DNA of 64,000 nt, taken from positions 1 through 64,000 of the forward strand of contig CALWHT010000010.1 in NCBI GenBank assembly GCA_944380515.1. The letters run 5' to 3'. The position numbers and the translations under genes were made by a program. How positions within the stretch are numbered: the first letter of the stretch is position 1; each line of letters opens with the position of its first letter. A model generated the notes under the pieces. It was not told where the DNA came from and searched no databases. It was given only the letters and a program-made list of their open reading frames with translations. Below, in pieces: positions 20,532 to 54,897 of this stretch. Source of the stretch: an uncultured Roseburia sp. (GTDB lineage: Bacteria > Bacillota > Clostridia > Lachnospirales > Lachnospiraceae).

Positions 20532-20546
20532 CTCCATTCCGGAGCG
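20532..20546 (-). repeat. Dispersed leader repeat, tail-only copy D, forming a ribosome site
   Basis: CGCTCCGGAATGGAG on the minus strand, identical to the ends of the full copies. It begins directly after the response regulator TAA stop and ends 7 bases before the kinase ATG, supplying its Shine-Dalgarno sequence. Confidence 0.75.
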
Positions 20547-21233
20547 TTATGCCTCCATTTTGTAGCCGCGGCCCCAGACTACCTTTAAATAACGCGGCTC
20601 TGCCGGATTATACTCCACCTTTTCCCTCAAATGTCGGATATGCACCGCCACGGTATTTTCCGTACCGTAGGGATTATCCTTCCATACCTGTTCATAGATC
20701 TGATTCGGCGAAAACACCTTGCCGGGATTCTCCATCAAAAGCTTTAAAATATCATATTCCGTCCGGGTCAGTGATACTCTCTCCCCGTCCAGAGTCACCT
20801 CCTTGGTGCGGTCGTCAAGCTCAATTCCGCCGATGACGAGGGTCTCGCTTTTCACGTTTCCTCCCCCGAGGAGCATGTAGCGTCTGAGCTGCGATTTCAC
20901 GCGCGCCTGCACCTCCACCGGGTTAAACGGCTTCGTGATGTAGTCATCCGCACCCACCGTAAGTCCCAGTATCTTATCGGTATCCTCGCTCTTGGCCGTC
21001 AGAAGTATGACCGGAACGTTGCTCACCTCCCGGATTTTTACCATAGCGGAGATTCCATCCAGCTCCGGCATCATAATATCCATGAGTACCAGGTGGATTT
21101 CATGCTCGTTCAGCACCTTCAGCGCCTCCCTTCCGTTATAGGCCTCGAAAACCTGATAGCCGTCCGCCGTCAGATATATTTTTAATGCGGATACAATATC
21201 CTTCTCATCGTCACATACCAGTATGCTGTACAT
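20547..21233 (-). CDS. OmpR-family response regulator
   Basis: A 228-residue DNA-binding regulator. The receiver domain (1-120) has acidic pocket residues Asp8-Asp9, phosphoacceptor Asp52 (VLMDIMMPELDG) and Lys near 103. A winged-helix output domain (130-228) ends in VWGRGYKMEA. It pairs with the kinase downstream. The real start is MYSILV: the 23-codon upstream extension beginning MADANWKF is translated repeat sequence, not protein. The leader contains repeat copy A with an upstream ORF. Confidence 0.94.
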   Translation of the reverse strand: MYSILVCDDEKDIVSALKIYLTADGYQVFEAYNGREALKVLNEHEIHLVLMDIMMPELDGISAMVKIREVSNVPVILLTAKSEDTDKILGLTVGADDYITKPFNPVEVQARVKSQLRRYMLLGGGNVKSETLVIGGIELDDRTKEVTLDGERVSLTRTEYDILKLLMENPGKVFSPNQIYEQVWKDNPYGTENTVAVHIRHLREKVEYNPAEPRYLKVVWGRGYKMEA

Positions 21234-21240
21234 CTCTAAT

Positions 21241-21330
21241 CTCCATTCCGGAGCGTTTTTTGCGACGGGGGGCGACGCAAATTTCCAATTTGCGTCTGCC
21301 ATCAGGGCTCATTTGTGACGCTCCGGCACA
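21241..21330 (-). repeat. Dispersed leader repeat, full copy A (core)
   Basis: On the minus strand the element runs from GTGCCGGAGCGTCAC to CGCTCCGGAATGGAG. The ends pair (CCGGAGCGT with ACGCTCCGG) and an inner hairpin GACGCAAAT/ATTTGCGTC lies between. The last bases are the Shine-Dalgarno of the response regulator. The same element is found at 34528-34617 and 54807-54897. Confidence 0.85.
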
Positions 21331-21389
21331 ATATAGCCAACGCAAACAAGTTTGCGTTTGAAAAATAAGCTATCGAGCTTATTTTTCAA
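21309..21389 (-). CDS. Possible leader peptide (upstream ORF) in repeat copy A
   Basis: A 26-codon ORF starting at TTG with GGGAGGAG 5 bases upstream. The peptide begins MKNKLDSLFF and ends VPERHK, overlapping the start of the repeat core. A related ORF is in copy B. An in-frame ATG 15 codons earlier would give 41 residues but has a weak site. Expression is not shown; conservation of the reading frame in two copies is the only support. Confidence 0.45.
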   Translation of the reverse strand: MKNKLDSLFFKRKLVCVGYIVPERHK

Positions 21390-21391
21390 AC
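21356..21391. repeat. Perfect hairpin module attached to repeat copy A
   Basis: GTTTGAAAAATAAGCT and AGCTTATTTTTCAAAC are perfect 16-bp inverted arms around a 4-base centre. The copy at 34622-34657 has GTGTG/CACAC at the ends, a paired change in both arms that keeps the stem intact. Confidence 0.85.
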
Positions 21392-21463
21392 TATCTCCTC
21401 CCTCACACCCTCCGCGCGCCCGACCATCCGGCATCGGAGCTGCGCTTCCGTGTTTATGGTTTT

Positions 21464-21492
21464 ATTGTAGCGGAATAATTATGAATTTCCAA
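21464..21492 (-). promoter_or_regulatory. Promoter of the two-component operon
   Basis: TTGGAA (21492-21487) and TACAAT (21469-21464) with a 17-base spacer on the minus strand. It predicts a leader of about 220 nt that includes the hairpin module, the upstream ORF and the repeat core. Confidence 0.6.
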
Positions 21493-21519
21493 TCGGTCAA
21501 AACATTAAGATTTGATGAA

Positions 21520-21558
21520 GAAACGGCAGCCGCCTTCCGCAAAAGACGCTGCCGTTTC
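21520..21558 (-). terminator. Hairpin after the helicase gene
   Basis: GAAACGGCAGC and GCTGCCGTTTC are perfect 11-bp arms 17 bases past the helicase stop codon. The minus-strand tail TTCATC is weak, while the plus-strand side has a T-rich run. Confidence 0.5.
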
Positions 21559-21574
21559 AAAAATCTTTTTTATT

Positions 21575-23167
21575 CTATTTCTGGTTCGCAGGCTCCATAT
21601 TCACGGAGCGGCCCTTGATTTTGGCGTGCTTCATGCCCTCCAAAACCTCTCTGCCGTATTCCCTCGGAACCTCCACAAAGGTGTATTTGTCATACATATC
21701 AATGGCTCCGACCAGCTTTCCGGGCATACCGGACTCCCCGGCAACCGCGCCTAAAATGTCTCCCGGTTTTATGCGGTCCTTTTTCCCGATGTTGATAAAC
21801 AGGCGGACCATGCCTTCCTCCGCCCCGGTATTCTCAAAATCAGGCTCCTCGTCCCTGTCGTTGTCAAGGCTGACCTGCCCGAGCGCCTGCTTTAAAAATG
21901 CGGCTGCGATATCCATTGCCGTATAGTCGGATTCATTAATCTGCCTTTCGATGATGTCTATCATATCCCGGATATTTTCTTCATCAATAATTCTGGCGAT
22001 TTCATCCATCACCTTCTCCGCCTTAATCTGTGCCACGTCGTCCGTGGACGGAATCGGCATCGCAACGATTTTTGTCTTGCAGTAGCGCATGATGTCCTTT
22101 AACTTATAGACCTCCTTGCCCTTCACGAAGGTGAAGGCCCGCCCGGTGCGCCCCGCACGGCCGGTACGTCCGATGCGGTGTACATAATACTCATCATCCT
22201 GGGGAATATCGTAATTAAATACCGCCTCGACATCATCCACGTCAATTCCACGCGCAGCCACGTCGGTGGCAATCAAAATCTCGGTCTTCCCGGTGCGGAA
22301 GCTCTTCATCACACGGTCCCTCTGCGTCTGCTTCATGTCGCCGTGAAGCCCCTCGGCAAAGTAGCCGCGCCCCTGCAGCTCCCCTGTCAGCTCATCAACC
22401 ATCCGTTTGGTGTTGCAGAACACCAGCGAAAGCTTGGGATTGTAATAATCGAGCAGCCTCGTTAAAACCTCGACCTTATCTTTTCGTTTTACATCATAAT
22501 AATACTGCTCAATGCTGGGTACGGTCAGTTCTTTTTTTACGACCTTAATCGTGACAGCGTCATGCTGGTATTTTCTGGTAATATCCAGAATGGGCTTTGG
22601 CATAGTCGCGGAAAAAAGCACCGTCTGCCGTCCCTCCTCGGGAATATACTGCAAAATCGTCTCGATGTCCTCGCGGAAGCCCATGTTTAACATCTCGTCC
22701 GCCTCATCCAAAACAACGGTGTTGACTGCCTCGCAGCGGATGGTTTTTCTCCGCAGATGGTCCATCACACGCCCCGGCGTTCCGATAATAATCTGCGCGC
22801 CTCCCTTTAAGGCCTTTATCTGGCGGCCGATTTCCTGCCCTCCGTACACCGGAAGCACCTTGATGCCGTGCATATATTTCCCGAGCCTGCGGATTTCGTC
22901 CGCCACCTGGATTGCCAGCTCCCTTGTCGGAGATAAAATAATAACCTGCGTTTTTCTATTGTCCGGATCCACCTTATGGAGAACCGGGATTCCGAAGGAA
23001 GCCGTCTTTCCGGTTCCCGTCTGTGCCTGTCCGATAACGTCCACCCCCGACATCACAACGGGGATTGCCTGGCTCTGAATCGGCGTCGCCTCCTCAAAAC
23101 CCATTTCCTCAATCGCACGCAGCACCTGCGGATATAAATTTAATTGTTCAAATCTAACTGTTTCCAT
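21575..23167 (-). CDS. DEAD-box RNA helicase with DbpA-type RNA-binding domain
   Basis: A 530-residue ATP-dependent RNA helicase. The motifs in order are AQTGTGKTASF (I), PTRELAIQ (Ia), DEAD, SAT and HRIGRTGRAGRTGRA (VI). The final 75 residues (MVRLFINIGKKDRIKPGDIL onward) are a DbpA/CsdA-like RRM fold that targets structured RNA, often 23S rRNA. I start at METVRF with AAAGGA 4 bases upstream. The gene is monocistronic. Relatives act in ribosome assembly or cold adaptation. Confidence 0.93.
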   Translation of the reverse strand: METVRFEQLNLYPQVLRAIEEMGFEEATPIQSQAIPVVMSGVDVIGQAQTGTGKTASFGIPVLHKVDPDNRKTQVIILSPTRELAIQVADEIRRLGKYMHGIKVLPVYGGQEIGRQIKALKGGAQIIIGTPGRVMDHLRRKTIRCEAVNTVVLDEADEMLNMGFREDIETILQYIPEEGRQTVLFSATMPKPILDITRKYQHDAVTIKVVKKELTVPSIEQYYYDVKRKDKVEVLTRLLDYYNPKLSLVFCNTKRMVDELTGELQGRGYFAEGLHGDMKQTQRDRVMKSFRTGKTEILIATDVAARGIDVDDVEAVFNYDIPQDDEYYVHRIGRTGRAGRTGRAFTFVKGKEVYKLKDIMRYCKTKIVAMPIPSTDDVAQIKAEKVMDEIARIIDEENIRDMIDIIERQINESDYTAMDIAAAFLKQALGQVSLDNDRDEEPDFENTGAEEGMVRLFINIGKKDRIKPGDILGAVAGESGMPGKLVGAIDMYDKYTFVEVPREYGREVLEGMKHAKIKGRSVNMEPANQK

Positions 23168-23532
23168 TCTTTCCTTTCTCAAAACGTCCGTCCGATTTTT
23201 CCGCGGACGCACGTCTGCGGCGTTTCACCTGGCCCCACAGGGCAAACTAATAGGGGCTGTCATGACAGCCCCTTCATAAGCGCAACAGTCTGAATGATAA
23301 CACGACACTTCGCTTTTGTCAAGAAAAAACTGCTCTGTCAATAACGATTATGTAACCCAAAACCTGAAACGCACTCAGGCTCCGGGCAGGTTCATATAAA
23401 AAGCAATCGACAGAAACGTATTTCACCCATACCGTAGCTTTTTTCTTTCCGCTCCCCCGTAAAAATGTAATATTTCGATTGCGGGTTTTCCTACATAATG
23501 TATTCTATGCGGAAACAATCGAAACGTTCCGT
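23168..23532. other. Non-coding interval upstream of the helicase gene
   Basis: This 365-base stretch has no credible gene. It contains AGGGGCTGTCATGACAGCCCCT (two halves, 23252-23273), a perfect palindrome, and a smaller stem around 23203-23222. A weak CCTGA/TCAGG hairpin with TTTT at about 23360-23385 on the minus strand could end the GGDEF transcript. The palindrome would lie in the helicase leader. Confidence 0.5.
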
Positions 23533-25155
23533 CTAAATATGCTCTTTCTCGTCCGGTCCGTCCAAATGACCTATTGCAATGCCATTCCTGTTCTTTTCCT
23601 TCACCTGGTAGAGCATTCTGTCCGCGGTGTGCAGAAAATCCCAGCTTTTCGTCTCATCGCCGGGCACGTCGCAGCAAATTCCCTGCGAAATGGTTATCTG
23701 ATCAAGCCCCTCGGAATAATCATGCTTTAGCTTAAGACCCATGATGCGCTCACGAAGCCGTTCCGCCTCCCCGTAAACTTCCGCCTCAGTCATATCCTCA
23801 TAGATAATGATAAATTCGTCCCCGCCGTAGCGCGCACAGAAAATCCGGTCATTCTGCATGGCCGCAAGCTGTCCCGCGATTGCGGTGATACATGCGTCAC
23901 CTGCCTGATGACCGTAATGGTCGTTGTACTGCTTAAAATAATCAATATCGAGAATTTCCACCGCCAGCAGCTTTTGACCCCTTTTCGCCCGCTCAAACGC
24001 CGTCTCGGAATATTCGTTCAGCCGGAAGCGGTTCGGCAGTTGTGTCAGCGCATCTGTCTCCGATTTTTCCTGAAGTCTGATATTGTCCGCTTCCACCTCC
24101 CTGCGTTTCTCATTGGCCCGCTCTAAGGAGCTTCGAAGGCCGAGCATATTCGCGATGATATATCGATTTTCACGCTCCATCATTTCGGACAGCTCATAAT
24201 AAACTCCCGCCGCCTTAAAATAAGCGTCATGATCCCTGTTTTTCCGGTAATATCTGATTTGCAGAGAAACCATTTTTTTTTGCAGATTTACCATTTTCGC
24301 CTGTTTCACAAGCTGCTCCAGTATGCCGGACACCTTTAAAAAGCCTTCGTCGCAGCCGATTTCCAATAGCAGCCCGCAAAGCCGGTAAAAGTCGTCAAAT
24401 ACGTCCATTACCGCCATATCCGCATTGATTTCCCTGCAAACGGTGCAGATACACGCGTCTCGCTGTTCTATCTGCCCCATGCGGTGATAAAGCTGTGCCT
24501 GAAAGCACAGTGCGTAAAGCTGTTCTGTCTTCCCGATATGCGAGAGACATTCCTCCTGTAACCGCCTGACATAGCTCTGCGCCCTTTCCGTCATGCCGCG
24601 CAGCATATAGCTGCTGCCGAGGCTGACATAAATGCAGGTCAAAATTGCATAGTAGTCCTCCGTCTGCCCTGACCGGCGCAGGCAGCCGAGGCTCCCCTCA
24701 AAATACTTCTGCGCCTCGACATATTGCCCGTTCGAGAGGTAGAGATTTCCCAGGTTTAAACGGATCATATTTTCTATCTCATATAATTCGTACTTTTTAC
24801 ACACGCTAAGCCCCATCAGATAATAATCCATTGCAATCGGTTCGTTTCCCCGATTCACGGAAGCAATCGCGAGAATATTGTACGCGCGGGCAAGCAGCTC
24901 CCACTGCTTCGAACGCTCCAGGCAGGAAACTGCCTTTGTAATGGATTGAAAAAAATGCTCTCCGTCGTTTAACAGATAATAGGTTTCTCCCGCATAGTAG
25001 GACGCGAAGCCAAGCAGCCCCGCGTCGTCATGTTCCCCGGCAAACCGCGCAAGCCTGCCGCAGTATTTTAACGTCCGCTCCGCATCGCTCCCGCGACACG
25101 CAAGCACCTCTTTCACGCAGTCATCCACTGTGCCGCCATATCCGAAAGACCCCAT
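23533..25155 (-). CDS. Diguanylate cyclase with N-terminal TPR-like repeats
   Basis: A 540-residue cytosolic protein. Residues 1-350 are helical tetratricopeptide-like repeats without a membrane segment. A coiled-coil linker (about 340-365) follows, and then the GGDEF domain with an intact RYGGDEFIIIYED active site near 460. The intact motif predicts synthesis of cyclic di-GMP. GGGAG lies 8 bases before the ATG. It stands alone. TPR-GGDEF proteins probably respond to a protein or peptide partner; which one is unknown. Confidence 0.92.
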   Translation of the reverse strand: MGSFGYGGTVDDCVKEVLACRGSDAERTLKYCGRLARFAGEHDDAGLLGFASYYAGETYYLLNDGEHFFQSITKAVSCLERSKQWELLARAYNILAIASVNRGNEPIAMDYYLMGLSVCKKYELYEIENMIRLNLGNLYLSNGQYVEAQKYFEGSLGCLRRSGQTEDYYAILTCIYVSLGSSYMLRGMTERAQSYVRRLQEECLSHIGKTEQLYALCFQAQLYHRMGQIEQRDACICTVCREINADMAVMDVFDDFYRLCGLLLEIGCDEGFLKVSGILEQLVKQAKMVNLQKKMVSLQIRYYRKNRDHDAYFKAAGVYYELSEMMERENRYIIANMLGLRSSLERANEKRREVEADNIRLQEKSETDALTQLPNRFRLNEYSETAFERAKRGQKLLAVEILDIDYFKQYNDHYGHQAGDACITAIAGQLAAMQNDRIFCARYGGDEFIIIYEDMTEAEVYGEAERLRERIMGLKLKHDYSEGLDQITISQGICCDVPGDETKSWDFLHTADRMLYQVKEKNRNGIAIGHLDGPDEKEHI

Positions 25156-25237
25156 AGACAGCGCTCCCTTCTCTTGATCAGCTACTCCCCGACACTTTCA
25201 TATTATAGGATAGCATACTGACTTATTCAAGGAAAGT

Positions 25238-26020
25238 CTATTCAAAGAAATCAATCGGGTCGATGGGCGTCCCGTCCTTCTGCAATTCGAAATACAGATT
25301 GCTTCCCTCCACGGAAAAATATTTTGTCGGTTCTCCGATATATCCCAGTACATGTCCCGCCTCAACATAGTCTCCTTCCGCGAAGTTGAGCTCTTTCAGC
25401 TGTCCGTATATGGCACTGTAGCCGTCACCCAAATCCACGGTCACCGTGCAGCCGGTTACCTCGTCATTTTCAATCCCTGTCACCTGCCCCTTTGCCACAC
25501 AGTAAACCTTATCATTGACATCTCCCTCGATGATAATTGCCGGGTTGTATTTATACTGGTCAAGAGTCGGAAAATACACAGTAGAATCCATACTGTAATT
25601 GATGGTGACATTTCCCTCCATCGGCCACATCAGCCCGTCTTCCGCCGAAAAATGAAGTGCCTGTCCCGTACCTGCTGTTTCCTCCACCGTCTGGGCGTCC
25701 TCGGCCGCAGTTTCGGTATTTTCCGTCATTTCAGTCGTCTCCGTCTCTTGTGCGACTTCGGCGGTCTGCGTGCTGTCCTCCTCCGTCTCCTTCGGCGGTA
25801 TTACTGCCGACGCCTCAGCCGACTGCTCCGTGTCCTCGACCGCCGCCAATTCCTCCGGATCCGACTGCTGGTTCATTTCCTCGGCAAGCTCCGCCTCCAG
25901 CTGCTCCCGCTCTTTTTCCTGTTTATTGCTGTAAAGGACCGTCGTCCCTATTGCCGCAATGATTACGAGAGTTCCCGCAATCACATATTGCTTTTGCCGT
26001 AAAAATCCTTTCTTTTTCAT
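25238..26020 (-). CDS. spoIIQ: SpoIIQ-like M23-fold protein, catalytic residues missing
   Basis: A forespore membrane protein that in sporulating Firmicutes pairs with SpoIIIAH in the channel between mother cell and forespore. One helix (about 14-32), an acidic Glu/Thr/Ala linker (35-125) and a C-terminal LytM/M23 fold (about 130-260) are visible. The zinc residues of M23 peptidases are absent: the first motif reads YKYNPAIIIEG and the second YFELQKDG. It is therefore probably structural. It follows spoIID by about 65 bp, which supports the name. The start is uncertain between two ATGs four codons apart. Confidence 0.82.
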   Translation of the reverse strand: MKKKGFLRQKQYVIAGTLVIIAAIGTTVLYSNKQEKEREQLEAELAEEMNQQSDPEELAAVEDTEQSAEASAVIPPKETEEDSTQTAEVAQETETTEMTENTETAAEDAQTVEETAGTGQALHFSAEDGLMWPMEGNVTINYSMDSTVYFPTLDQYKYNPAIIIEGDVNDKVYCVAKGQVTGIENDEVTGCTVTVDLGDGYSAIYGQLKELNFAEGDYVEAGHVLGYIGEPTKYFSVEGSNLYFELQKDGTPIDPIDFFE

Positions 26021-26086
26021 ATCCTTCACCATCCATTGTTTATTTTTAACTATATTGTTACCTGTTTTGGATGGTTTATACGAATA

Positions 26087-27073
26087 TTACTGAATTTTTT
26101 GCGCTTTGGTGATTTCCGCGCCGGGATAAAAATATTCCAGAATTTCCCTGTAGCTTTTTCCTTCCTCCGCCATGGTTTCCGCCGTGTGCTGGCTGAGTCC
26201 GAATCCGTGTCCGACTCCCTTCGTCACAATCCGCACTTTATCGTCGATTTTCGTCACCGTAAAGCAGGCGGACGGCAGCTCAAAGGCCGTACGAAATTCC
26301 TCACCCGTACATTCAGTGTCTCCGACCTTCATTTTTAAAACATAATCTGAAGCGTCGCGCCCTTCTATTTGAATTTTTTCTGCGGAATCCAGTTCTTTGG
26401 TCCCGAATGTCTCCCGGCACTGCGACAAAAAGTCCTCCTCCTCAAAATAATATACCGACAGATAGCCCTTTGCGCTCGTATCCCCATGACATTCCTTTTC
26501 CATCAGGTACGGCATATCAGCATCCCCGTACAAATCCGACATGTTTCTGGTTCTGCCGCTGCTGATGGCATGGTACGCAGCGTAAATATAGCTGCCGTCC
26601 CAGGTGAGAACTTCATCCGCGGTTTTCCCGGCACACTCCGAAAATTTCTGATAAATGCGGTTAAAGTCCTCTCCCCAAAGCGTCTGCATTTCCTCCATGG
26701 AAAGACCCTGCGGCTCCGCGGTTTGATTTTTGGCGGCATCATAGAGGTTTGTCCTCGCTATGACGCACTGCGCCATAATCGCGGCGTCCTCATAATCCGC
26801 CCCGATTTCCTTTGCCGCCACAAAAAGAACCTTCTGCTCAAGCTCCCTGTTTTGCTCCGTTTCCTCGGTCTCCCCCGAGCCGCCCCAAAGCAGGCTCCCT
26901 TCCCCGGACTCATATACCGCTTCGGTCGCTGATTCCACGTAAACGCTCTGGCCGCTGATCAATTTTTCCAGCTTCATGCTCTGCATGACCGTAGTCACAA
27001 GCAGCGGCAGCAATATCACAATCATCAACGAGGAAAAAAACTGATTTCCTCTTTTTTTCCGTCTTTTTCTCAT
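26087..27073 (-). CDS. spoIID: Stage II sporulation protein D
   Basis: A membrane-anchored lytic transglycosylase that degrades peptidoglycan during engulfment. The 328-residue protein has one N-terminal helix after a basic start (MRKRRKKRGN) and a SpoIID/LytB domain over the rest. Typical stretches are YAAYHAISSGRTRN and GVGHGFGLSQHTAE, the latter near the C-terminus. The true start is MRKRRK: AAGGAG is 8 bases upstream. That site lies inside a terminator-like hairpin (27078-27117). spoIIQ follows. Confidence 0.93.
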   Translation of the reverse strand: MRKRRKKRGNQFFSSLMIVILLPLLVTTVMQSMKLEKLISGQSVYVESATEAVYESGEGSLLWGGSGETEETEQNRELEQKVLFVAAKEIGADYEDAAIMAQCVIARTNLYDAAKNQTAEPQGLSMEEMQTLWGEDFNRIYQKFSECAGKTADEVLTWDGSYIYAAYHAISSGRTRNMSDLYGDADMPYLMEKECHGDTSAKGYLSVYYFEEEDFLSQCRETFGTKELDSAEKIQIEGRDASDYVLKMKVGDTECTGEEFRTAFELPSACFTVTKIDDKVRIVTKGVGHGFGLSQHTAETMAEEGKSYREILEYFYPGAEITKAQKIQ

Positions 27074-27077
27074 AAAA

Positions 27078-27117: not shown

Positions 27118-27139
27118 CTCATTCGAATCAGCAGAAGAT

Positions 27140-30946: not shown

Positions 30947-32242
30947 GTGAATATCCAGATGAATATGTCTTTGGCGGAAAAGCTTGCCATACTTTCGGAT
31001 GCCGCAAAGTATGATGTCGCCTGCACCTCCAGCGGCGTGGACCGCAGAGGGAACGGCGCGGGAATGGGCAACTCCGTCGCCGCCGGAATCTGCCATACTT
31101 TTTCCGCCGACGGGCGCTGCGTGTCTTTGCTCAAAATCCTTTTCACCAACGAGTGCATTTTTAATTGTGCCTACTGCCAGAACAACTGCAATTCCGACGT
31201 TCCCCGCGCTTCCTTCACGCCGGATGAGGTCTGCGAGCTCACGATGGAGTTTTACCGGAGGAATTATATTGAAGGACTTTTTTTAAGCTCCGGCATTATG
31301 GTCAGCCCCAACTACACCATGGGTCTCATTTATCAGACGCTCTATCAGCTCCGCAGGGTTCATCAGTTCAACGGCTATATCCATGTAAAGGCCATCCCGG
31401 GCGCCGACCCCGTTCTGGTCGAAAAAACCGGTTTTCTGGCTGACCGCATGAGCATTAATCTGGAGCTTCCCACCGCAGAGGGCTTAAAAAAACTTGCCCC
31501 CTACAAATCCCGGCATACCATTTTAAAGCCCATGCGGCAAATTCAGAACCGCATTACCGAAAACAAGAACGAAGTTGCCCTGTACCGCAAAGCCCCCCGC
31601 TTTGTACCGGCAGGCCAGAGCACACAGATGATTATCGGCGCAACCCCCGAGCACGATTATGAGATTATGCGTGTCGCCGAATCGCTCTATCAGAAATTTG
31701 ACTTAAAACGTGTTTTTTATTCCGCCTTTGTAAATGTCAATCAGGACGCCAATCTTCCCGTCCTCCCCGGCGGGCCGCCCCTGCTGCGGGAGCACCGACT
31801 CTATCAGGCGGACTGGCTGCTGCGCTACTATGATTTCACGGTGGATGAACTGCTCTCGGAGGAGCGCCCCGACTTTAATATTTATCTCGACCCCAAGTGC
31901 GACTGGGCGCTGCGCCACCTTGAATGCTTCCCCATCGAAATCAACCGCGCAGACTACCGCACGCTGCTGCGGGTGCCGGGAATCGGAGCAAAATCGGCAC
32001 AGCGCATTGTAAAGGCACGGCGCACCGCCGCCCTCGGTTTCTCCGACCTGAAAAAAATCGGTGTGGTTTTAAAGCGCGCGCTCTATTTTATCACCTGCTC
32101 CGGAAAAATGATGTACCGCACAAAGCTGGACGAGGATTATATCTGCCGGAATCTGATCGGCGACCGGACACAGATTCCGCGCGAAATTCGGGAAGCGGGT
32201 TATAAACAGCTCAGCCTGTTTGATATCGGCATGGAGCCATGA
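30947..32242 (+). CDS. Radical SAM protein, putative DNA modification/repair (TIGR03916 type)
   Basis: A 431-residue radical SAM enzyme. The cluster motif is Cys70-Cys74-Cys77 (CIFNCAYC), preceded by KILFTNE. A helix-hairpin-helix (LLRVPGIGAKSAQRIVKARR) near 345-364 suggests DNA contact. The family is known only as linked to uracil-DNA-glycosylase-like proteins; its reaction is unknown. The start is GTG with GAAGGTG about 7 bases upstream. The TIGR03915 gene follows, and the promoter has LexA-like boxes. Confidence 0.88.
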   Translation: MNIQMNMSLAEKLAILSDAAKYDVACTSSGVDRRGNGAGMGNSVAAGICHTFSADGRCVSLLKILFTNECIFNCAYCQNNCNSDVPRASFTPDEVCELTMEFYRRNYIEGLFLSSGIMVSPNYTMGLIYQTLYQLRRVHQFNGYIHVKAIPGADPVLVEKTGFLADRMSINLELPTAEGLKKLAPYKSRHTILKPMRQIQNRITENKNEVALYRKAPRFVPAGQSTQMIIGATPEHDYEIMRVAESLYQKFDLKRVFYSAFVNVNQDANLPVLPGGPPLLREHRLYQADWLLRYYDFTVDELLSEERPDFNIYLDPKCDWALRHLECFPIEINRADYRTLLRVPGIGAKSAQRIVKARRTAALGFSDLKKIGVVLKRALYFITCSGKMMYRTKLDEDYICRNLIGDRTQIPREIREAGYKQLSLFDIGMEP

Positions 32243-32251
32243 CACAGCAAA

Positions 32252-32268
32252 GGCTCCGGAATGGAGAT
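32252..32268 (+). repeat. Dispersed leader repeat, tail-only copy E, forming a ribosome site
   Basis: GGCTCCGGAATGGAG followed by ATTATCATG, matching the end of repeat copy B (CGCTCCGGAATGGAGATTAT) and supplying the Shine-Dalgarno for the TIGR03915 gene. The rest of the element is absent. Confidence 0.7.
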
Positions 32269-32272
32269 TATC

Positions 32273-33172
32273 ATGTATACCTTTATCTGTGAAGACAGTC
32301 CGAACGGAATTTTCAGCGGCGTCTATGACGCCTGGGCTTTTAAAATACAACAGAATAAGCAGATGCCCGACGGCGGCGGACAGTCTGGTTCCCGGGCAGC
32401 CGGGCAGACCCGGTGTACCCATGACGACATCCGGCTTACCAGCCGGGAACCGGACAATTATGAACTGTTTTCTCAATATTTCCCGGTGACTCCCTCTGCG
32501 GAAAAATCCGACAAGGTTGCCCGGACGCTGTGCGCTCGTCTGGGAACGGAATTTTATGAAACCGTTATGAACGCTCTGCTGGCCGTCATCCCTGAGCGCA
32601 AGGGCGAAATTGATAAGGCGGACGCCATTTACCATACGGTCGTTTTAGCGCTCTCCTCCCCGGCAGGCGCAAATACGCTGCACCGCCTGAATCATCCGCA
32701 CGTGCACCGCGTCTTTACGCTTTCCCGCGCAACCGCCAATGAGGCACATCATCTGTTGGGATTTCTGCGTTTCCGTGAGCTGGAAAACGGCGTACTTTTT
32801 TCCACAATCCACCCAAAAAATAACGCCCTGCCGATTCTGGCAGAGCATTTTACCGACCGTCTCCCGCAGGAAAATTTTATCATTTACGATGAAAACCGCC
32901 GCCAGGCCGCAGTACACGCCGCCGGAAAGAATTTCATGCTGGCGGACGCCTCCGATTTGGATGAAGCGATGATAAAGCGGGAGTCCTGCCGTGAAGCAGA
33001 ATATCAGAGTCTCTGGCTCGCCTTCTTTGAAAACATCGCCATCCGGGCAAGAGTAAACCCCAAGCTGCAGGCGCAGAATATTCCGAAACGCTTCTGGCGC
33101 GACACTATCGAACTTTCACGAACAGGCGGCGGGCATTTTCCTCCGTCACACGCTCCACTTCCTCCGGAGTGA
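32273..33172 (+). CDS. TIGR03915 family DNA-metabolism protein (DUF4130)
   Basis: A 299-residue soluble protein always found with the TIGR03916 radical SAM protein. It carries a DUF4130-type domain in the C-terminal two-thirds (VHRVFTLSRATANEAHHLLG near 137; the conserved end is ENIAIRARVNPKLQAQNIPKRFW). Biochemical role unknown; a DNA-repair function is inferred from its partner and promoter. I start at MYTFIC; the ATG four codons earlier is part of the ribosome-site repeat. The last 27 codons lie in an 82-bp duplication of the tatD 3' end. Confidence 0.85.
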   Translation: MYTFICEDSPNGIFSGVYDAWAFKIQQNKQMPDGGGQSGSRAAGQTRCTHDDIRLTSREPDNYELFSQYFPVTPSAEKSDKVARTLCARLGTEFYETVMNALLAVIPERKGEIDKADAIYHTVVLALSSPAGANTLHRLNHPHVHRVFTLSRATANEAHHLLGFLRFRELENGVLFSTIHPKNNALPILAEHFTDRLPQENFIIYDENRRQAAVHAAGKNFMLADASDLDEAMIKRESCREAEYQSLWLAFFENIAIRARVNPKLQAQNIPKRFWRDTIELSRTGGGHFPPSHAPLPPE

Positions 33173-33173
33173 T
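33092..33173. repeat. 82-bp direct repeat, left copy (gene-overlap duplication)
   Basis: Matches 33732-33813 in 78 of 82 bases, same orientation. It contains the last 27 codons of the TIGR03915 gene, and, on the other strand, the tatD 3' end. The toxin-antitoxin remnant lies between the two copies. Confidence 0.92.
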
Positions 33174-33731: not shown

Positions 33732-33813
33732 TTCTGGCACGACACTATCGAACTTTCACGAACAGACGGCGGGCATTTTCCTCCGTCGCGCGCTCCACTT
33801 CCTCCGGAGTGAT
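33732..33813. repeat. 82-bp direct repeat, right copy (tatD 3' end)
   Basis: The counterpart of 33092-33173. It holds the native end of tatD (stop codon complement at 33745-33747). Reading its plus strand gives the same C-terminal codons and stop that the TIGR03915 gene uses in the left copy. Confidence 0.92.
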
Positions 33814-34527: not shown

Positions 34528-34617
34528 CTCCATTCCGGAGCGTTTTACGCGACAGGGCGACGCAAATCTTCAATTTGCGTCTGCCATCAGGGGGATTGGT
34601 GACGCCCCGGCACAAAT
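34528..34617 (-). repeat. Dispersed leader repeat, full copy B (core)
   Basis: The same element as at 21241-21330: outer arms CCGGGGCGT/ACGCTCCGG (one G-U pair as RNA), inner hairpin GACGCAAAT/ATTTGCGTC, ending in GGAATGGAG before tatD. The inner region is very close to copy A. Confidence 0.85.
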
Positions 34618-34655
34618 CCCCGTGTGAAAAATAAGCTATCGAGCTTATTTTTCAC
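34587..34655 (-). CDS. Possible leader peptide (upstream ORF) in repeat copy B
   Basis: A 22-codon ORF starting at GTG with GGAG 5 bases upstream. It begins MKNKLDSLFF like the ORF in copy A, then diverges and shares only VPGRH with VPERH near the end. An in-frame ATG five codons earlier (MNGDS) is possible. Expression is not shown. Confidence 0.45.
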   Translation of the reverse strand: MKNKLDSLFFTRGFVPGRHQSP

Positions 34656-34657
34656 AC
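34622..34657. repeat. Hairpin module attached to repeat copy B
   Basis: GTGTGAAAAATAAGCT and AGCTTATTTTTCACAC, perfect 16-bp arms. It differs from copy A by a paired change in both arms, so the stem is conserved rather than just the sequence. Confidence 0.85.
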
Positions 34658-34696
34658 TATCTCCATTCATTTCTTTTTCGTGTCCGGCAATATCAT

Positions 34697-47792: not shown

Positions 47793-47805
47793 GTATCCAC
47801 CCGCG

Positions 47806-48591: not shown

Positions 48592-48610
48592 AATCTCTCC
48601 ATCTGCCGCC

Positions 48611-50581
48611 TTATCCCCGTCTCTTTCCGGTACGGCGTTTTACCAATTTTACCACGAATACGATAAGGACCGCAACCAGTAAAATGACAGCGGCAGCGAC
48701 CGCCGTAATGATTACGGCATACTTATTCGGATTTTTGATCAAATCCAGAAGATTGGTGCTGTCCTCAACCACCTTTCTTCCCTGCTCTTCCTCGTAATAC
48801 GCCGGTACATTGGCTGTCCCGTCCCCGTCCGTGTCAGGGAAGGACTCCATATAGCCCGCAATGGCCTCCCAGGCCTTTAACTCCTTACCGTTTTCCATGA
48901 CAATGGCGTCTTCAAGGTCTTCGATTACCGTTCCGTCCTCATATTTGGGCACCACCGAGAGAATGCCGTAGGACATATCCGTCACAGCGCCGAGCATCTG
49001 CCCGCTGTATAAGTCCGCTACCACGCGGTAAAGCCTGTCATCGTCGATTTCCTCCCGCTGTCCGTCATCCCCCAGCAGATAGACGTCGGTAACTTTATTT
49101 AAAATCATGCGGTTCGGGTTATACGAAAATTGCAGTCCGCTCATATAAAGCCGCGCCGTCGTCATATAATCCGAAATCGACGCGTCGATTTCCGCCACGG
49201 TCTTAAGCTCGCTGCCCGTCAGGTAAACGCTCACCAGCGGATAGCCCGGCACTCCGTCCGGACCAATTCCGAGCGAAAAGGAGTTAAACACATCCTCCAC
49301 GGTAATATCGCCGGGCGTATAGGTATCACGCACCGTTCCGCTTGGTACGACCGCCACATCCACCGGTTTTCCGTCAAAATCCCCGGCGTTTGTGACTGCA
49401 TACATGTAGGCGTCCGCAATAATGCTGCCCAGATTCTGCTCCGTATGCTCCGTCTCCAGCTCTTTCAAATCGGAAAATTCCACGTCATTCTGCGCCAGCA
49501 CCTGTTCCCTGGTATAGCCAAAGTCGGAAAGGTATCCCGTGTCTACGGCCGAAAGAAAAGAATCCGCTTTCTCCTGCACCTTCTGCTCCGGCTCAATATC
49601 CGACGTAACCGTAATCAGTTCATAGCTCTCCATGCTCCATCTTCCGTCCTCGTTCTGCTCCATATGCAGAGAACCGAGACGCTTTCCGTATTCCCCTGCC
49701 GACACAATATAGGTATTGCCGTGTACAATCGGCTCGGAGAGCTCCGTATGGGTATGTCCGCTGATAATCAAATCAAGCTCCGGCACACTCTTTGCCAGAA
49801 TTTCATCCTCGGATTTGTCTTCATCCTCCCAGGTTCCGCTGTGGGAAACGCAGACAATCATATCCGCGTCCTCTTTTTCCTTAATTTCCGCCACGGTTTC
49901 TTTTACCGCCTCGACCGGGTCCCGGAACAAAAGCTCACAGGTGGGCGCGCAGGCGAGCGAATCGTTTCCGAATACGCCGATGACCGCAACCGACACGTCG
50001 CCCTTTTGCAGCATTACATAGTCCTTTACGCCGTATGCCTCAAAGCCGTCTTTGATTGCCTGCTGCCCTTCGTTTAAGCCCTGGCTCTCCATCGCCTCCC
50101 AATCCACATTGCAGACGACAAGCTCAGGCAGCGTATCCCCGCTGGCCGCAGCGGTCTTAAGCATATTGGAAAGTCCCTCGGAGCGATAATCAAATTCATG
50201 GTTGCCAAGCGTCGTGACCTCGCAGCCGATTTCTCCAAGCATCCTAAGCTCCGCCGCCTGACTTTCATAAACCGTCTGCACCAGTGTTCCCATGGAAAAA
50301 TCCCCGCCGTCTAAAATAAGCGTATCCGGATTTTTCTCCTTCTGCGCGTCTATAAGGGTTTTGATTCTCGCAAACCCTCCGACCTCCGCTTCCTCGCCGT
50401 CCACAAGCGTGGTAAAACTATTCAAATGCGAATGGGTATCGTGGGTAAACATGACATCTATCTGTTTTGCCTGTGTCTTTCCCTCCACGTATTGTGTGTC
50501 TGCCATACCTGCCGCTCCCAAAGTCAACAACAGCGCAGAAAATGCCGCCAGCAGCATTCTGCCTTTTTTTCTTTTTCCCAT
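48611..50581 (-). CDS. Surface-anchored 5'-nucleotidase/2',3'-cyclic phosphodiesterase
   Basis: A 656-residue exported phosphatase that would strip phosphate from nucleotides outside the cell. Signal peptide (1-32); metallophosphatase domain with TGDVMFTHDTHSHL-like ligands (MFTHDTHSHL), GGDFSMG, LGNHEFDY and ISGHTHTE; nucleotide-binding C-terminal domain to about 600; then a membrane helix (about 622-645) and a basic tail. I start at MGKRKK; GGGGG is about 12 bases upstream. A coiled-coil gene follows. Confidence 0.93.
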   Translation of the reverse strand: MGKRKKGRMLLAAFSALLLTLGAAGMADTQYVEGKTQAKQIDVMFTHDTHSHLNSFTTLVDGEEAEVGGFARIKTLIDAQKEKNPDTLILDGGDFSMGTLVQTVYESQAAELRMLGEIGCEVTTLGNHEFDYRSEGLSNMLKTAAASGDTLPELVVCNVDWEAMESQGLNEGQQAIKDGFEAYGVKDYVMLQKGDVSVAVIGVFGNDSLACAPTCELLFRDPVEAVKETVAEIKEKEDADMIVCVSHSGTWEDEDKSEDEILAKSVPELDLIISGHTHTELSEPIVHGNTYIVSAGEYGKRLGSLHMEQNEDGRWSMESYELITVTSDIEPEQKVQEKADSFLSAVDTGYLSDFGYTREQVLAQNDVEFSDLKELETEHTEQNLGSIIADAYMYAVTNAGDFDGKPVDVAVVPSGTVRDTYTPGDITVEDVFNSFSLGIGPDGVPGYPLVSVYLTGSELKTVAEIDASISDYMTTARLYMSGLQFSYNPNRMILNKVTDVYLLGDDGQREEIDDDRLYRVVADLYSGQMLGAVTDMSYGILSVVPKYEDGTVIEDLEDAIVMENGKELKAWEAIAGYMESFPDTDGDGTANVPAYYEEEQGRKVVEDSTNLLDLIKNPNKYAVIITAVAAAVILLVAVLIVFVVKLVKRRTGKRRG

Positions 50582-50741
50582 CAAAAGAGCAATCCCCCTA
50601 TCCCGAAGACCGCGCATAGAAACGCGCGTCGCTTTACATATTTTTTACATAAAATATACTTTCATTTTACTTTAGATTTTGCTGTATGTAAACCGGGATT
50701 TGCTCTTTGATGACTCGTACACCCGAAATGTTTTTGAAGCT

Positions 50742-51461
50742 TTACGGGCGCAGCACGTTATTTTTTACCAGCCCGACCGATATATATCGCTCAAGCACGG
50801 CCCGGATATCAGTTCCCTCCTCCGCCGTCCGTGCCGGAATGCCGTCCGCCTCCATGGTAAAGCTCCCGTCCTCATGCTCCTTCTTCCGGTAATGATCCAG
50901 ATAATACTGCTGCTGCGACGGGACGCGCTCCCATAAAATTCCTCTGCATTCCTCCGCGGCGCAGCCCGGAAAGTTCACATTCCAAAGCGCGTTTGCGGGA
51001 GGTCTTTTCTCTGTCAACTGTTTTGCGATTTCCGGAAGATACCGCTCCGCCGCACCGTAGATGCCGTTGGATTCGTTGGAAAAGGCAATCGCGGGTATTC
51101 CGTGCAAAAGCGCCTCCATCGCCGCGCCGACCGTACCGGAATAAAGGATGTCAAAGCCTGTGTTATAGCCAAAATTAATTCCCGAAAATACAATATCAGG
51201 CTTTTCCGGCATCAGATATAAAAGCGCGGCCTTCACACAGTCCGCCGGCGTTCCGTCCACCTGATATGCCGTCACCCCCTCCACCGGAAAATCGGCACTG
51301 CGCACCGTGACTTGGGAATGTACGGTTATCCGGTGCGACATGGCGCTGCACTGGTTTGCGGGAGCCACCACCCATACCTCGCCAAGCTCTGCCGCCAGCT
51401 TCGCCAGCCGGCAAATCCCCTCCGCCTGTATTCCGTCATCGTTTACCACTAAAATTCTCAT
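50742..51461 (-). CDS. surE: 5'/3'-nucleotidase SurE
   Basis: A 239-residue metal-dependent nucleoside monophosphatase of the survival protein family. The metal site is ILVVNDDGIQ at 3-12, with NQCSAMSHRIT and SGINFGYN as the other active-site loops. The start MRILVV follows the family; the ribosome site is weak (AGG 12 bases upstream) and a TTG three codons earlier is possible. Its neighbour is a second nucleotidase. Confidence 0.95.
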   Translation of the reverse strand: MRILVVNDDGIQAEGICRLAKLAAELGEVWVVAPANQCSAMSHRITVHSQVTVRSADFPVEGVTAYQVDGTPADCVKAALLYLMPEKPDIVFSGINFGYNTGFDILYSGTVGAAMEALLHGIPAIAFSNESNGIYGAAERYLPEIAKQLTEKRPPANALWNVNFPGCAAEECRGILWERVPSQQQYYLDHYRKKEHEDGSFTMEADGIPARTAEEGTDIRAVLERYISVGLVKNNVLRP

Positions 51462-51527
51462 ATTATTTTTCAACCTGTTCCCTTTCATTGTTGCCTTTCT
51501 GTAAAACCGTAATGCACATACAGCGCA

Positions 51528-52724
51528 TTATACCTTATCCCTCTCGTGCCGCTCAATCTTTTTTTTGTAAAAACTTTGTGATTTTTTATGAAATCTATTG
51601 GCTTTGACGCAGCAAGAAGGAAACCTGTATTTTCCTTTTCCATGTCCGGATACCGGCTCAATAATTCCTGCCTGTACCAGTTTTCCAATCAGTTTCGATG
51701 CGCTTGAGTTCTGGAGTCCCAAAAGCTCGCAGACAGCACCCCTTCCAAATATATCCTCACTTCCAAACGCTTCAAACATCTTCTGGATATGAGCGACCGT
51801 CTTATTCGAAAAACCTTTTATTTGTTCTGAAAAGACTGTTTCAATATCTACTTTTTCCTTTTGAATGTCTACTTTTCCCTCGTCAATATCTCCTTTTTGT
51901 GCTTTCAAGAGGCCACTGATGTGCATATCCCGATTATGCAGTTCATTTTTCTCATTCAGAAGCAGGTTTCTTAAGAATACTTCAAGAAACTCCGTCGTTT
52001 CGTGGATACCTTTTTGCAGGTTCATATAATTTGCGCGGACAAGCGCATTTCTGAAATACCACGCATTATCTGCAAAAATATCGTTGGTCGCTGAAAATCC
52101 AAGCATCCTCAGATACTTGATTAAAAAGACCGCCGTCGTCCTCGTGTTCCCCTCCCCGAAAATATGGATTTGCCACAGTCTTGAAATAAATAGCGCAATA
52201 TGATGGATAATCTCATCCATCGAAAGTCCTTTGTAACTGAAATTCCTTTCCTGTGAAAAATCATATTCGAGAGTGTCTCTTAACTCGGAAGCGCTTCCAT
52301 ATAAAACAGTTGCTCCGTCCAAAACCCACTCTTTTTTCGTTATATTGTAGTCTCTTATTTTCCCGGCATGTTTGTATATGCCCTGAAACAGTTTGCGGTG
52401 GATGGAAATATATTCATTCGGCGAAAAGGAAAATGCATGCTCCGACAGGATTTCCGCAATCCGGGCCGACACCTTATCTGCTTCTTCGGTACGCTCACCG
52501 TCTGACAGCTCCGGTCTCTCCTCATAATAACTGTCAATAAGTTCCTTCGCTTCTTTCAGTGTAATATTGCCTTCTATATTTTGAATTGCAGTATCAATCA
52601 GATACTTCGAAGGCTTTAATCCATCTACTGCCTGCAATCCGATTGCTGTACTCCATGCGTAGCTTTTGCCGGCCTTATCAGGTTCGGACTCCTTCAGGTA
52701 TTCCTTAAACGGGTCTTTGTCCAT
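51528..52724 (-). CDS. Fic family protein (probable AMPylase)
   Basis: A 398-residue protein with a Fic domain (about 95-265). The active loop reads HIFGEGNTRTT, a variant of HPFxxGNGRxxR: the catalytic His, Glu and Asn are kept, the last Arg is replaced. An IEGN stretch near residue 50 resembles the inhibitory helix motif but lacks its Ser/Thr. A winged-helix domain is at the C-terminus (about 315-375). Such enzymes transfer AMP to proteins. GAGG precedes the ATG. A DnaK paralogue lies upstream. Confidence 0.9.
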   Translation of the reverse strand: MDKDPFKEYLKESEPDKAGKSYAWSTAIGLQAVDGLKPSKYLIDTAIQNIEGNITLKEAKELIDSYYEERPELSDGERTEEADKVSARIAEILSEHAFSFSPNEYISIHRKLFQGIYKHAGKIRDYNITKKEWVLDGATVLYGSASELRDTLEYDFSQERNFSYKGLSMDEIIHHIALFISRLWQIHIFGEGNTRTTAVFLIKYLRMLGFSATNDIFADNAWYFRNALVRANYMNLQKGIHETTEFLEVFLRNLLLNEKNELHNRDMHISGLLKAQKGDIDEGKVDIQKEKVDIETVFSEQIKGFSNKTVAHIQKMFEAFGSEDIFGRGAVCELLGLQNSSASKLIGKLVQAGIIEPVSGHGKGKYRFPSCCVKANRFHKKSQSFYKKKIERHERDKV

Positions 52725-52740
52725 ATCACTACCTCATTTC

Positions 52741-52923
52741 CTAATATCGTTTATTCCTCTGAACGCTTTCCAAAACGTCTTTCCACCAGATGCTGATATT
52801 CCGACAGTTCAAATTATATTTATTATGCACTAAAATTTTTGCTCCTTCAATAATCTTGTAAGTATTATTCCATAACCAGTATATCCCTCTCGTTTCAATA
52901 TGAGTAGGTAAAATGGCATACAC
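52741..52923 (-). CDS. Possible small protein of 60 residues
   Basis: An ORF 16 bp upstream of the Fic gene on the same strand, with AGGTG 8 bases before its ATG. It is rich in Trp, Tyr and Asn and matches no family I know. It could be a gene remnant or chance. Confidence 0.3.
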   Translation of the reverse strand: MYAILPTHIETRGIYWLWNNTYKIIEGAKILVHNKYNLNCRNISIWWKDVLESVQRNKRY

Positions 52924-52952
52924 AACACACCTGGCTCATTGCTGTACGCAAA

Positions 52953-52991
52953 AAGGACACTTCCCTAAAATTCCTTTAGAGAAATGTCCTT
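52953..52991 (-). terminator. Terminator after the DnaK paralogue gene
   Basis: AAGGACATTTCTCTAAA pairs with TTTAGGGAAGTGTCCTT on the minus strand around GGAAT, followed by TTTTTGC. It separates the DnaK gene from Fic. Confidence 0.85.
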
Positions 52992-53027
52992 AAAGGTACA
53001 AATTATTTGATTGGTTGTTCTTATTTC

Positions 53028-54800
53028 TCAGGCGCTTTCCCGCTCGTTTAAAAGCATGCCTGCCGATTGCTCAAGCGCCTCCTTTGCCTTCCGAAGCTCA
53101 AGCGCCTGTTCCTCGGTGACATTTCCGGGTTTTGTCCGGGAAACCAGCTTTTTCAGATAGGACAAATCCGCCTTTATCTGCTTCTTTACAGATTTATCGA
53201 GCGTCTTTTTCTCCTTTGCCAGCCCGGCCTCTACCCGCCGCACCAGCGTGTCCGCCTCATTCCTCACATCGATGTAAGCGCGGCGCGCCCCGTCGGACGC
53301 CTCATATTCCGCCGCTTCCCGGATTGCACGCTCAATTTCATCCTCCGACATGTTGCTGCTGGAGGTAATCGTAATCTGCTGCTGTTTTCCGGTACCGAGA
53401 TCCTTCGCCGAGACCTGCACGATTCCGTTCGCATCAATGTCAAAGGTGACCTCAATCTGGGGCACACCCGCCATCGCAGCCTTTATGCCGCTAAGCCGGA
53501 AGTTTCCCAAAAGCTTGTTGTCTCTGGCAAACTGCCGCTCCCCCTGCAGCACCTTGATTTCCACCGAGGTCTGGAAATTGGCGGCGGTGGAGAAAATCTT
53601 ACTGTGTCTGGTCGGTATCGGCGTGTTGCGCTCAATCAGCCTGGTCGCAACGCCTCCCACCGTCTCAATGGAAAGAGACAACGGCGTGACGTCCATCAAA
53701 ATAATCTCCGCGGCTGCGGAGCCAACCGCCACCTGCCCGCCGAGCTTTCCGCCCTGAACCGCCGCTCCAAGCGCCACGCACTCGTCCGGGTTTAAATTCT
53801 TTGACGGCTCTCTCCCCGTAAGCTGTCTTACCTTTTCCACGACAGCCGGCATTCTCGTAGAGCCGCCTACCAGCAATACCATGCCAAGCTCGGACGTAGA
53901 GACACCGGCATCGGAAAGCGCCTGCGTCACCGGCCCTGCCGTGCGCTCCAGCAGGTCATAGGTCAATTCCTCAAACTGCGCCCTTGTGATATTCATATCA
54001 AGATGCTTTGCCTCGCCCCGAACCGTCGTGATAAAGGGCAGATTAATATTGGTAGTCACTGCCGAGGACAACGCCTTTTTGGCTTTTTCCACTTCCTCGC
54101 GGACGCGTTGCATCGCCGCCGTGTCTTTCGACAAATCGACTTTTTCCTGTTTTTTATATTCCGAAACAATGTAATCAGCGAGCCGGGCATCAAAATCGTC
54201 CCCGCCGAGATGATTGTCCCCCGCCGTCGCCAGCACCTCAATCAGATTGTCCCCAATCTCGATCACCGACACGTCAAAGGTTCCGCCTCCGAGGTCATAT
54301 ACCAGAATCTTCTGCGGCGCGCCGTGATCCAGTCCGTACGCCAGCGCTGCCGAGGTCGGCTCATTGATGATGCGCAGCACATTTAATCCCGCAATTCTCC
54401 CGGCGTCCTTTGTGGCCTGACGCTGGGCGTCATTAAAATATGCCGGAACGGTGATGACAGCCTCGCTCACACTCTCTCCCAGATAACTCTCCGCATCCTT
54501 TTTCAGCTTCCTTAAAATCATGGCGGAAATCTCCTGCGGCGTATAGTACTTGCCGTCCACCTTCGCCCGATAGCTTCCGCCCATCTCTCTTTTTATGGAA
54601 AAAAAGGTTCTTTCCGCATTGACCGCCGCCTGGCGTCTTGCTAAATCGCCGACGAGGCGCTCCCCGTTTTTCGAAAACGCAACCACGGATGGCGTCGTCC
54701 GCGCTCCCTCCGCGTTTGTAATGACGACGGGGTTTCCGTTCTCCAGCACCGCCACGCAGCTATTTGTTGTTCCCAAATCAATTCCGATTACCTTTCCCAT
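53028..54800 (-). CDS. DnaK/Hsp70 paralogue without GrpE-DnaJ neighbours
   Basis: A 590-residue chaperone. The ATPase domain (1-375) has [14 protein letters not shown], the phosphate loops [11 protein letters not shown] and GGSTRMP, and the linker [10 protein letters not shown] region. The peptide-binding domain extends to about 500, and the helical lid is short, lacking the usual disordered tail. No grpE, dnaJ or hrcA is nearby, so it is likely a second, specialised Hsp70. The start MGKVIG has GGAG of repeat copy C just upstream; the 23-codon extension (MAADVN) is repeat sequence. Ser485 (NMSEDEIER) aligns with the residue AMPylated in BiP. Confidence 0.92.
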
Positions 54801-54806
54801 GTGATT

Positions 54807-54897
54807 CTCCATTCTGGAGCGTTTTACGTGCGCAGACGACTTAAACATCAGATTTACGTCCGCCGCCACGGCTTATTTGTGACGCTCCGGCACAAAT
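54807..54897 (-). repeat. Dispersed leader repeat, full copy C (core)
   Basis: Outer ends GTGCCGGAGCGTCAC and CGCTCCAGAATGGAG match copies A and B; the inner hairpin (GACGTAAAT/GTTTAAGTC) has diverged. It fills almost the entire predicted leader between the promoter and the DnaK start. There is no hairpin module on the far side. Confidence 0.8.

What the first reader, a model, noticed from the sequence alone, without database searches (positions are those of the whole stretch)
20532..54897. A dispersed structured leader element that supplies ribosome-binding sites
Five sites (20532-20546, 21241-21330, 32252-32268, 34528-34617, 54807-54897) share CGCTCCGGAATGGAG or a one-base variant, each 5-12 bases before a start codon of an unrelated gene (histidine kinase, response regulator, TIGR03915 protein, TatD, DnaK paralogue). 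The three full copies add a matching GTGCCGGAGCGTCAC arm and an inner hairpin. The CTCC next to GGAG could mask the ribosome site in one fold and free it in the other, so this may be a riboregulator, or a mobile repeat recruited as a ribosome site.
Basis: partly seen in the sequence, partly recalled or inferred. Interest (0 to 1): 0.78.

Follow-up and report, generated by a model that had tools for sequence, protein, structure and literature searches.

The report
Jumping DNA that rebuilds ribosome sites
A small repeated DNA element in one family of bacteria inserts itself in the few bases between a gene's ribosome-binding site and its start codon, and carries a folded replacement ribosome-binding site at its far end, so that the gene can probably still be translated.

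Summary
CGCTCCGGAATGGAG occurs 38 times (28 exact, backward control 0) in this genome. At least 25 of these are fuller copies with the upstream arm, mostly an element of roughly 110-170 nt: hairpins H1, H2 and H3, then a tail ending in GGAATGGAG. Of 112 copies from other public genomes, 103 sit directly before an ORF of at least 60 aa, 82 of them exactly 6 nt before the start codon.

The element is mobile. Twelve genes carrying it here have clean empty sites in a sister genome. It lies between the host's own Shine-Dalgarno (SD) and the start codon. The old SD stays upstream (SD-like in 84 of 89 left flanks); the element's 3' end supplies a new one.

The H2 loop pairs with the tail just before the SD. 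This pseudoknot covaries across divergent families (46 of 52 copies score at least 6; own pairs beat all 200 swaps). The local CTCC/GGAG 'mask' is not conserved.

Best reading: a non-autonomous mobile element whose insertions spare translation because it carries a pseudoknot-presented SD. A ligand-sensing switch is not shown. The mobilising enzyme is unknown.

The parts
21241..21391 (-). Full element before the response regulator gene (ATG at 21233-21231). H1 at 21391-21356, extra hairpin about 21355-21342, H2 to tail at 21339-21241.
   Evidence: CM R1 88.8 bits; H1; also present in sister genome G006 (L062).
21241..21255 (-). 3' tail with SD (CGCTCCGGAATGGAG) of the response regulator copy
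21393..21400 (-). SD-like GAGGAGAT left of H1, read as the old host ribosome site
   Evidence: inferred from the rule
34528..34657 (-). Full element before tatD (ATG at 34521-34519). H1 at 34657-34622, H2 to tail at 34622-34528.
   Evidence: CM R1 100.2 bits; empty site in G006 (L216)
34661..34667 (-). Host AATGGAG (old tatD SD) left of the insertion, identical in the G006 empty site
34528..34542 (-). 3' tail with SD of the tatD copy
54807..54902 (-). Probably older copy without a recognisable H1 before the HSP70 gene (ATG at 54800-54798); tail CGCTCCAGAATGGAG
   Evidence: CM R1 71.5 bits; no H1 found
20532..20546 (-). Tail-only copy directly after the response regulator stop codon, before the histidine kinase gene (ATG at 20524-20522)
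   Evidence: the same in G006 (L062)
32233..32266 (+). Tail-only copy with a local arm GGAGCC (32233-32238) pairing with GGCTCC (32252-32257); SD 32263-32266; DUF4130 gene ATG at 32273
   Evidence: in G006 the arms read GGAGCCG/CGGCTCC

Best explanation
It is a non-autonomous mobile element, probably of Lachnospiraceae, of roughly 110-170 nt (130 and 151 nt for the two complete window copies), that inserts in sense orientation between a gene's SD and its start codon. Shown: it is an insertion, it sits right after the host SD, its own 3' end carries GGAATGGAG about 6 nt before the start codon, and a few host bases are repeated on both sides in part of the copies. Shown by covariation: H2 and H3 stems, and pairing of the H2 loop with the tail just upstream of the new SD. 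Inferred: the mRNA folds into this pseudoknot, which locks away the CTCC that would otherwise pair with SD sequences and presents the new SD to ribosomes. Translation therefore survives insertion, the old SD is free to decay, and the element escapes counter-selection even before genes that are usually essential. Unknown: the enzyme that moves it and how the SD is recognised.
For: Clean empty sites in G006: rpsR, tatD, and gpsA, asnB, whiA, recG, dfrA, recJ, ylqF, fliJ, L002 and L014 (gene names read by eye). In dfrA and whiA the host SD (GAAGG, GAGGG) differs from the element SD, so the element brings its own. Left flank SD-like in 84 of 89 copies; left and right 4-mers equal in 17 of 89 against 7.3 permuted, p=0.0005. 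ORF of at least 60 aa next to 103 of 112 copies, spacer 6 nt in 82. Tandems inserted behind an element's own SD: L093 and L134, L302, L303 and L313. Pair counts 93.8% against 32-43% for slid controls. Loop:tail own mean 7.23, highest of 200 swapped sets 6.01. SD opening by the pseudoknot computed. The old rpsR SD reads GACGG here where G006 has GGAGG.
Against: No transposition or translation was observed. No terminal inverted repeats and no exact constant target duplication; left junctions often lack one host base. No autonomous partner found, though the search for one was narrow. Families without a CTCC mask keep the pseudoknot, so unmasking alone does not explain its conservation. In L001, L007 and L014 the computed SD stays mostly closed (0.26-0.31) with the pseudoknot held, and in L014 it closes rather than opens. 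Six of 52 divergent copies lack good loop:tail pairing. Some copies have no clear gene behind them (L028 and L031; L117) or are decayed (L040).
Confidence: 0.74

Rival explanations
1. It is a true cis-riboregulator: a cofactor, temperature or protein shifts the loop:tail pseudoknot against the CTCC/GGAG hairpin and controls a regulon of some 30-40 genes.
For: Two mutually exclusive pairings exist in the canonical family, and holding loop and tail together changes computed SD opening from median 0.25 to 0.79. Conserved loop and H3 flanks.
Against: Downstream genes share no evident function (read by eye); the element is present or absent between sisters; the mask is missing in the GTCTGCGG and GCTCGTC families; the pseudoknot is much more stable than the mask.
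Confidence: 0.12
2. The loop:tail complementarity serves transposition, not translation: the element RNA (or single strand) uses the H2 loop as a guide that recognises the element's own right end, in the way IS200/605 guide sequences or IS110 bridge RNAs do (recalled).
For: Pairing is kept where no SD mask exists and involves the right end of the element.
Against: No Y1 transposase found in G000, G006, G045 or G015; the SD and start-codon spacing is also strictly kept; no IS110 test was made.
Confidence: 0.2
3. It is a leader-peptide and re-initiation device: ribosomes start at the old host SD on the NTG in H1, read a short ORF and re-initiate at the element SD.
For: 84 of 93 copies with a recognised H1 have NTG at its first bases, mostly behind an SD-like stretch; an 18-nt variant insertion keeps the frame (sequences, counted by eye).
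Against: Peptide length and frame are not kept (1 to 55 aa, 22 open); several H1 variants have no start codon (9 of 93; GCT in L280, CTG in L290).
Confidence: 0.12
4. Tail-only copies (20532, 32252) are a separate, older ribosome-site hairpin, and the full element grew from them.
For: They have their own local arms, changed on both sides between G000 and G006 at 32233-32257.
Against: In L333 (G052) a related full element sits at the same junction, and a 5'-shortened copy behind a host SD exists (L055).
Confidence: 0.15

Closest known systems
Small interspersed repeats / MITEs such as BOX and RUP of pneumococcus (PMC3049150, passages seen)
   Same: Short, multi-copy, structured, thought non-autonomous, sometimes transcribed with genes
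   Different: Those are over-represented between convergent genes; here copies lie in sense between SD and start codon and carry a new SD. No terminal inverted repeats seen here.
bcr1-bcr18 repeats of the Bacillus cereus group (PMC6542083, passages seen)
   Same: 100-400 bp, tens of copies (bcr1 averages 39 per strain), mobile features
   Different: Associated with a TTTAT motif; no SD link mentioned in the passages seen. Different host group.
'Mobile/repeat sequence candidates' of an intergenic survey of 50 genomes (PMC11109978, passages seen)
   Same: Structured motif with many copies per genome
   Different: Described as often inconsistent in orientation and near transposases; this one has constant orientation and position.
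SD-controlling riboswitches with H-type pseudoknots such as SAM-II or preQ1 (recalled)
   Same: A 3' strand beside or over the SD pairs with an upstream loop
   Different: Here pairing lies upstream of the SD and would free it. No ligand and no gene theme.
TD-2 RNA (RF03162) of Rfam
   Same: Two hairpins of similar order; weak match in L320 (37.2 bits on the opposite strand, 23.4 on the same strand)
   Different: Below the gathering score of 48.7; better on the antisense strand; not a family match

Membership tests
Non-autonomous mobile element (MITE-like) | Presence/absence polymorphism with empty sites | tested here: met
   12 clean empty sites in G006
Non-autonomous mobile element (MITE-like) | Many similar dispersed copies without a coding gene of its own | tested here: met
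Non-autonomous mobile element (MITE-like) | Terminal inverted repeats | tested here: not met
   Ends GTGTGAAA and GGAATGGAG are not inverted repeats (sequences, read by eye)
Non-autonomous mobile element (MITE-like) | Target site duplication | tested here: inconclusive
   17 of 89 equal 4-mers against 7.3 by chance; gpsA exact, several others shifted by a base
IS200/IS605 or REP-RAYT derivative | Y1 transposase (PF01797) in the host | tested here: not met
   None in G000, G006, G045 and G015, the four genus genomes with most exact tails; found in 9 of the 16 genomes searched. G006 is only 84% complete.
Riboswitch or other Rfam RNA family | Match to a known family model | tested here: not met
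   Window at gathering level: only the SRP RNA. 18 element loci at E<=1: no gathering-level match at the element, only TD-2 below threshold
cis-regulatory RNA switch | Ligand, temperature or protein dependent change of expression | not testable with these tools
   needs experiments
Structured RNA | Covariation supporting helices including the pseudoknot | tested here: met
Group II intron or IS110 derivative | Reverse transcriptase or DEDD transposase with matching ends | not tested

The most novel reading that the evidence does not exclude
A class of mobile elements that is aware of translation signals: it recognises the SD (its own 3' end is an SD, and tandem copies use an earlier element's SD as target) and re-creates it through a pseudoknot, making insertion before essential genes translationally silent, somewhat as splicing makes introns silent. 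The same loop:tail pairing could double as the guide for its own end during movement.
Probability: 0.35. Interest if true: 0.88.

Novelty: new variant of a known kind. Interest (0 to 1): 0.73.

Why it matters
Mobile DNA usually harms genes or hides between them. This family occupies the most sensitive few bases of a gene and seems to repair them in the act. It would be a natural series of interchangeable 5' leaders, can mislead start-codon annotation, and makes the question of how an element can target ribosome-binding sites testable with existing empty/filled pairs.

Tried and rejected
IS200/605 or REP origin: judged unlikely for lack of Y1 transposase in the element-rich genomes. Conserved leader peptide: start codon common but frame, length and peptide not kept. 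SD mask as the conserved feature: not kept across families (by eye). Phage carriage: exact two-arm pattern in IMG/VR 0; plasmids 0; three 'phage' records matched, unannotated faecal scaffolds, two of which I fetched; one copy lies before an enolase-like gene, so probably bacterial DNA (ORF lists). Pure GGAG homology plus loss of coding insertions: a rough window count gives 27 of 68 non-coding GGAG at SD positions (heuristic gene calls, and several of the other 41 lie in the elements themselves or beside misplaced starts), which looks too low to explain 103 of 112, so some real preference or selection is likely. An autonomous version was looked for only among H1 palindromes and tail/arm sites of G000: none seen. 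Literature: in the listings (titles and abstract starts; one search listed none) I saw no description of this element; the 2010 survey PMC2864571 was only searched for five terms, none found. That is not proof of absence.
Full report
Observation. The five sites are real and more than chance. In the whole genome (G000, 3.07 Mb in 66 contigs) the 15-mer occurs 38 times with up to one mismatch, 28 exact, and the backward control never. The arm GTGCCGGAGCGTCAC occurs 25 times with up to one mismatch; one of them (C50:73320) is not part of an element, and three others (before rpsR, before fliJ, and a decayed one in L040) have tails outside the 38. With a looser arm, 25 of the 38 tails have one upstream. 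Reading the sites together shows a longer element: H1, a near-perfect palindrome GTGTGAAAAATAAGC..GCTTATTTTTCACAC; H2, TATTTGTG[CCGGAGCGT]CACAAATA; H3, GACGCAAAT..ATTTGCGTC; then CGCTCCGGAATGGAG, a spacer and ATG. After merging copies with identical last 60 nt (38 to 35), 33 of 35 sites precede an ORF of at least 60 aa, one of these (L036) apparently a chance match inside a gene; L028 and L031 do not.

Distribution. The pattern does not include a start codon, yet of 112 distinct copies 103 stand before an ORF of at least 60 aa, 5 are too near a contig end and 4 have ORFs of 10-57 aa; the spacer is 6 nt in 82 of 103. A covariance model without the loop:tail pairing (R1) matches 33 of 220 family genomes, one per genus, at E<=1e-4, and 2 of 291 class genomes, the own genome and G127, both of the same family. 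Of 116 genomes (own included), 13 have the exact tail motif, all 13 in the own genus.

Mobility. In the sister genome G006 (84% complete) the same genes were compared. rpsR: G006 AACCAACAGGAGGTAATTATCATGG; here AACCAACAGACGGTAATA, the element, then GGAGGATTATCATGG. Of 30 rpsR leaders read, only this genome's has the element. tatD: G006 AAATGAATGGAGATTATGATG; here AAATGAATGGAGATA, the element, AATGGAGATTATTATG. Of 24 further gene starts, 21 were found in G006: ten have clean empty sites (L002, ylqF, gpsA, asnB, whiA, L014, recG, dfrA, recJ, fliJ), two lack the element but have diverged flanks (L023, L024), and nine carry the element, or a decayed, altered or contig-cut form of it, in both. Gene names here were read by eye from the translations. 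In the clean cases the insertion lies between the host SD or purine run and the start codon. For gpsA the host AGTA stands on both sides exactly. In dfrA and whiA the host SD is different from the element's, so the new SD is the element's own. Tandem copies (L093 and L134; L302, L303 and L313) show a second element behind the first element's SD. The response regulator and histidine kinase copies of the window are present in both genomes (L062).

Left junction. Among 89 copies with a recognised left end, 84 have an SD-like purine run within 14 nt, and -2/-1 are T (65) and A (83). The left 4-mer equals the right 4-mer in 17, permuted mean 7.3, p=0.0005. Copies are not fully independent, so this p is optimistic. 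In several empty/filled pairs the left side lacks one host base. Target duplication is therefore likely but its length is unsettled.

Structure. On 50 aligned copies, H2 and H3 carry many two-sided changes. The whole structure including the pseudoknot pairs in 93.8% of cells against 32-43% for slid controls; none of 500 shuffles reaches any of the five measures. This set came largely from an exact two-arm pattern, so the pseudoknot could hardly vary in it. The model search, which had no loop:tail pairing built in, found divergent copies in which loop and tail change together: CGAAGCG/CGCTTCG, CTGAGCG/CGCTCAG, GAGCAA/TTGCTC, CCGCAGACGT/ACGTCTGCGG, GACGGGC/GCTCGTC, TTGGAACGT/ACGTTCCAG. Scored by script, own loop:tail mean is 7.23 and 200 swapped sets reach at most 6.01; 46 of 52 score at least 6. 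The six exceptions are L310, L299, L313 (second copy), L306, L304 and L294.

How it may work. Loop:tail pairing (-16.9 kcal/mol as a duplex; its six-pair core -9.5) competes with the local CTCC/GGAG hairpin (-4.9). Holding loop and tail away from all other pairing, as if paired to each other, raises the computed mean unpaired probability of the SD from 0.28 to 0.71 (median 0.25 to 0.79) in 19 copies; L014 goes the other way, L001 does not change and L007 stays at 0.31. The full nine pairs may not all form around an intact H2; a six-pair core is geometrically more plausible (inference). Since some families have no mask at all, the pseudoknot probably has another role as well: a fixed spacing of the SD, or recognition during movement.

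Short copies. 20532 and 32252 are tail-only. At 32252 the tail's first base differs and a local arm matches it (GGAGCC/GGCTCC); G006 has GGAGCCG/CGGCTCC. At this junction the other genus members that could be read have leaders without the tail motif, and G052 has a related full element (L350 and L351 could not be placed). They are best read as shortened or partly lost copies that re-formed a local partner, often the old host SD itself (inference).

Known kinds. No Rfam family matches the element at threshold. It behaves like a MITE or bcr-type repeat but lacks inverted ends, Y1 transposase was not found in the richest genus genomes, and its place in the SD-start spacer has no parallel in the passages seen (PMC3049150, PMC6542083, PMC11109978) or in the listings (one search listed nothing). 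IS110 bridge RNAs, IS200/605 guides and SAM-II/preQ1 comparisons are recalled, not tested.

Noticed in passing
window 11426-11688, - strand: Bacterial large SRP RNA (RF01854), 186.8 bits.
   Followed up: no
window 33092-33173 and 33732-33813: An 82-bp, 95% identical duplication: the 3' end of tatD is repeated, antisense, at the 3' end of the DUF4130 gene.
   Followed up: partly
L333/L217 (G052), L046, L075: A second, related element type (GTGTGAAAAATAAGATTTTTCACATGC..., H2 loop CTTACG or CTTGCG), in L333 also placed between GAATGGAGATTA and a start codon.
   Followed up: partly
window 21231-21302: A longest-ORF caller starts the response regulator at an ATG inside the element (251 aa), so such leaders may distort start-codon annotation.
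   Followed up: no
L315 1-93, - strand: c-di-GMP-I riboswitch near one of the divergent copies.
   Followed up: no
L266 and L267 (MT836788.1, MT837007.1): Records filed as phage carry the element; in L266 the gene behind it looks like enolase (by eye), so they are probably bacterial scaffolds.
   Followed up: partly
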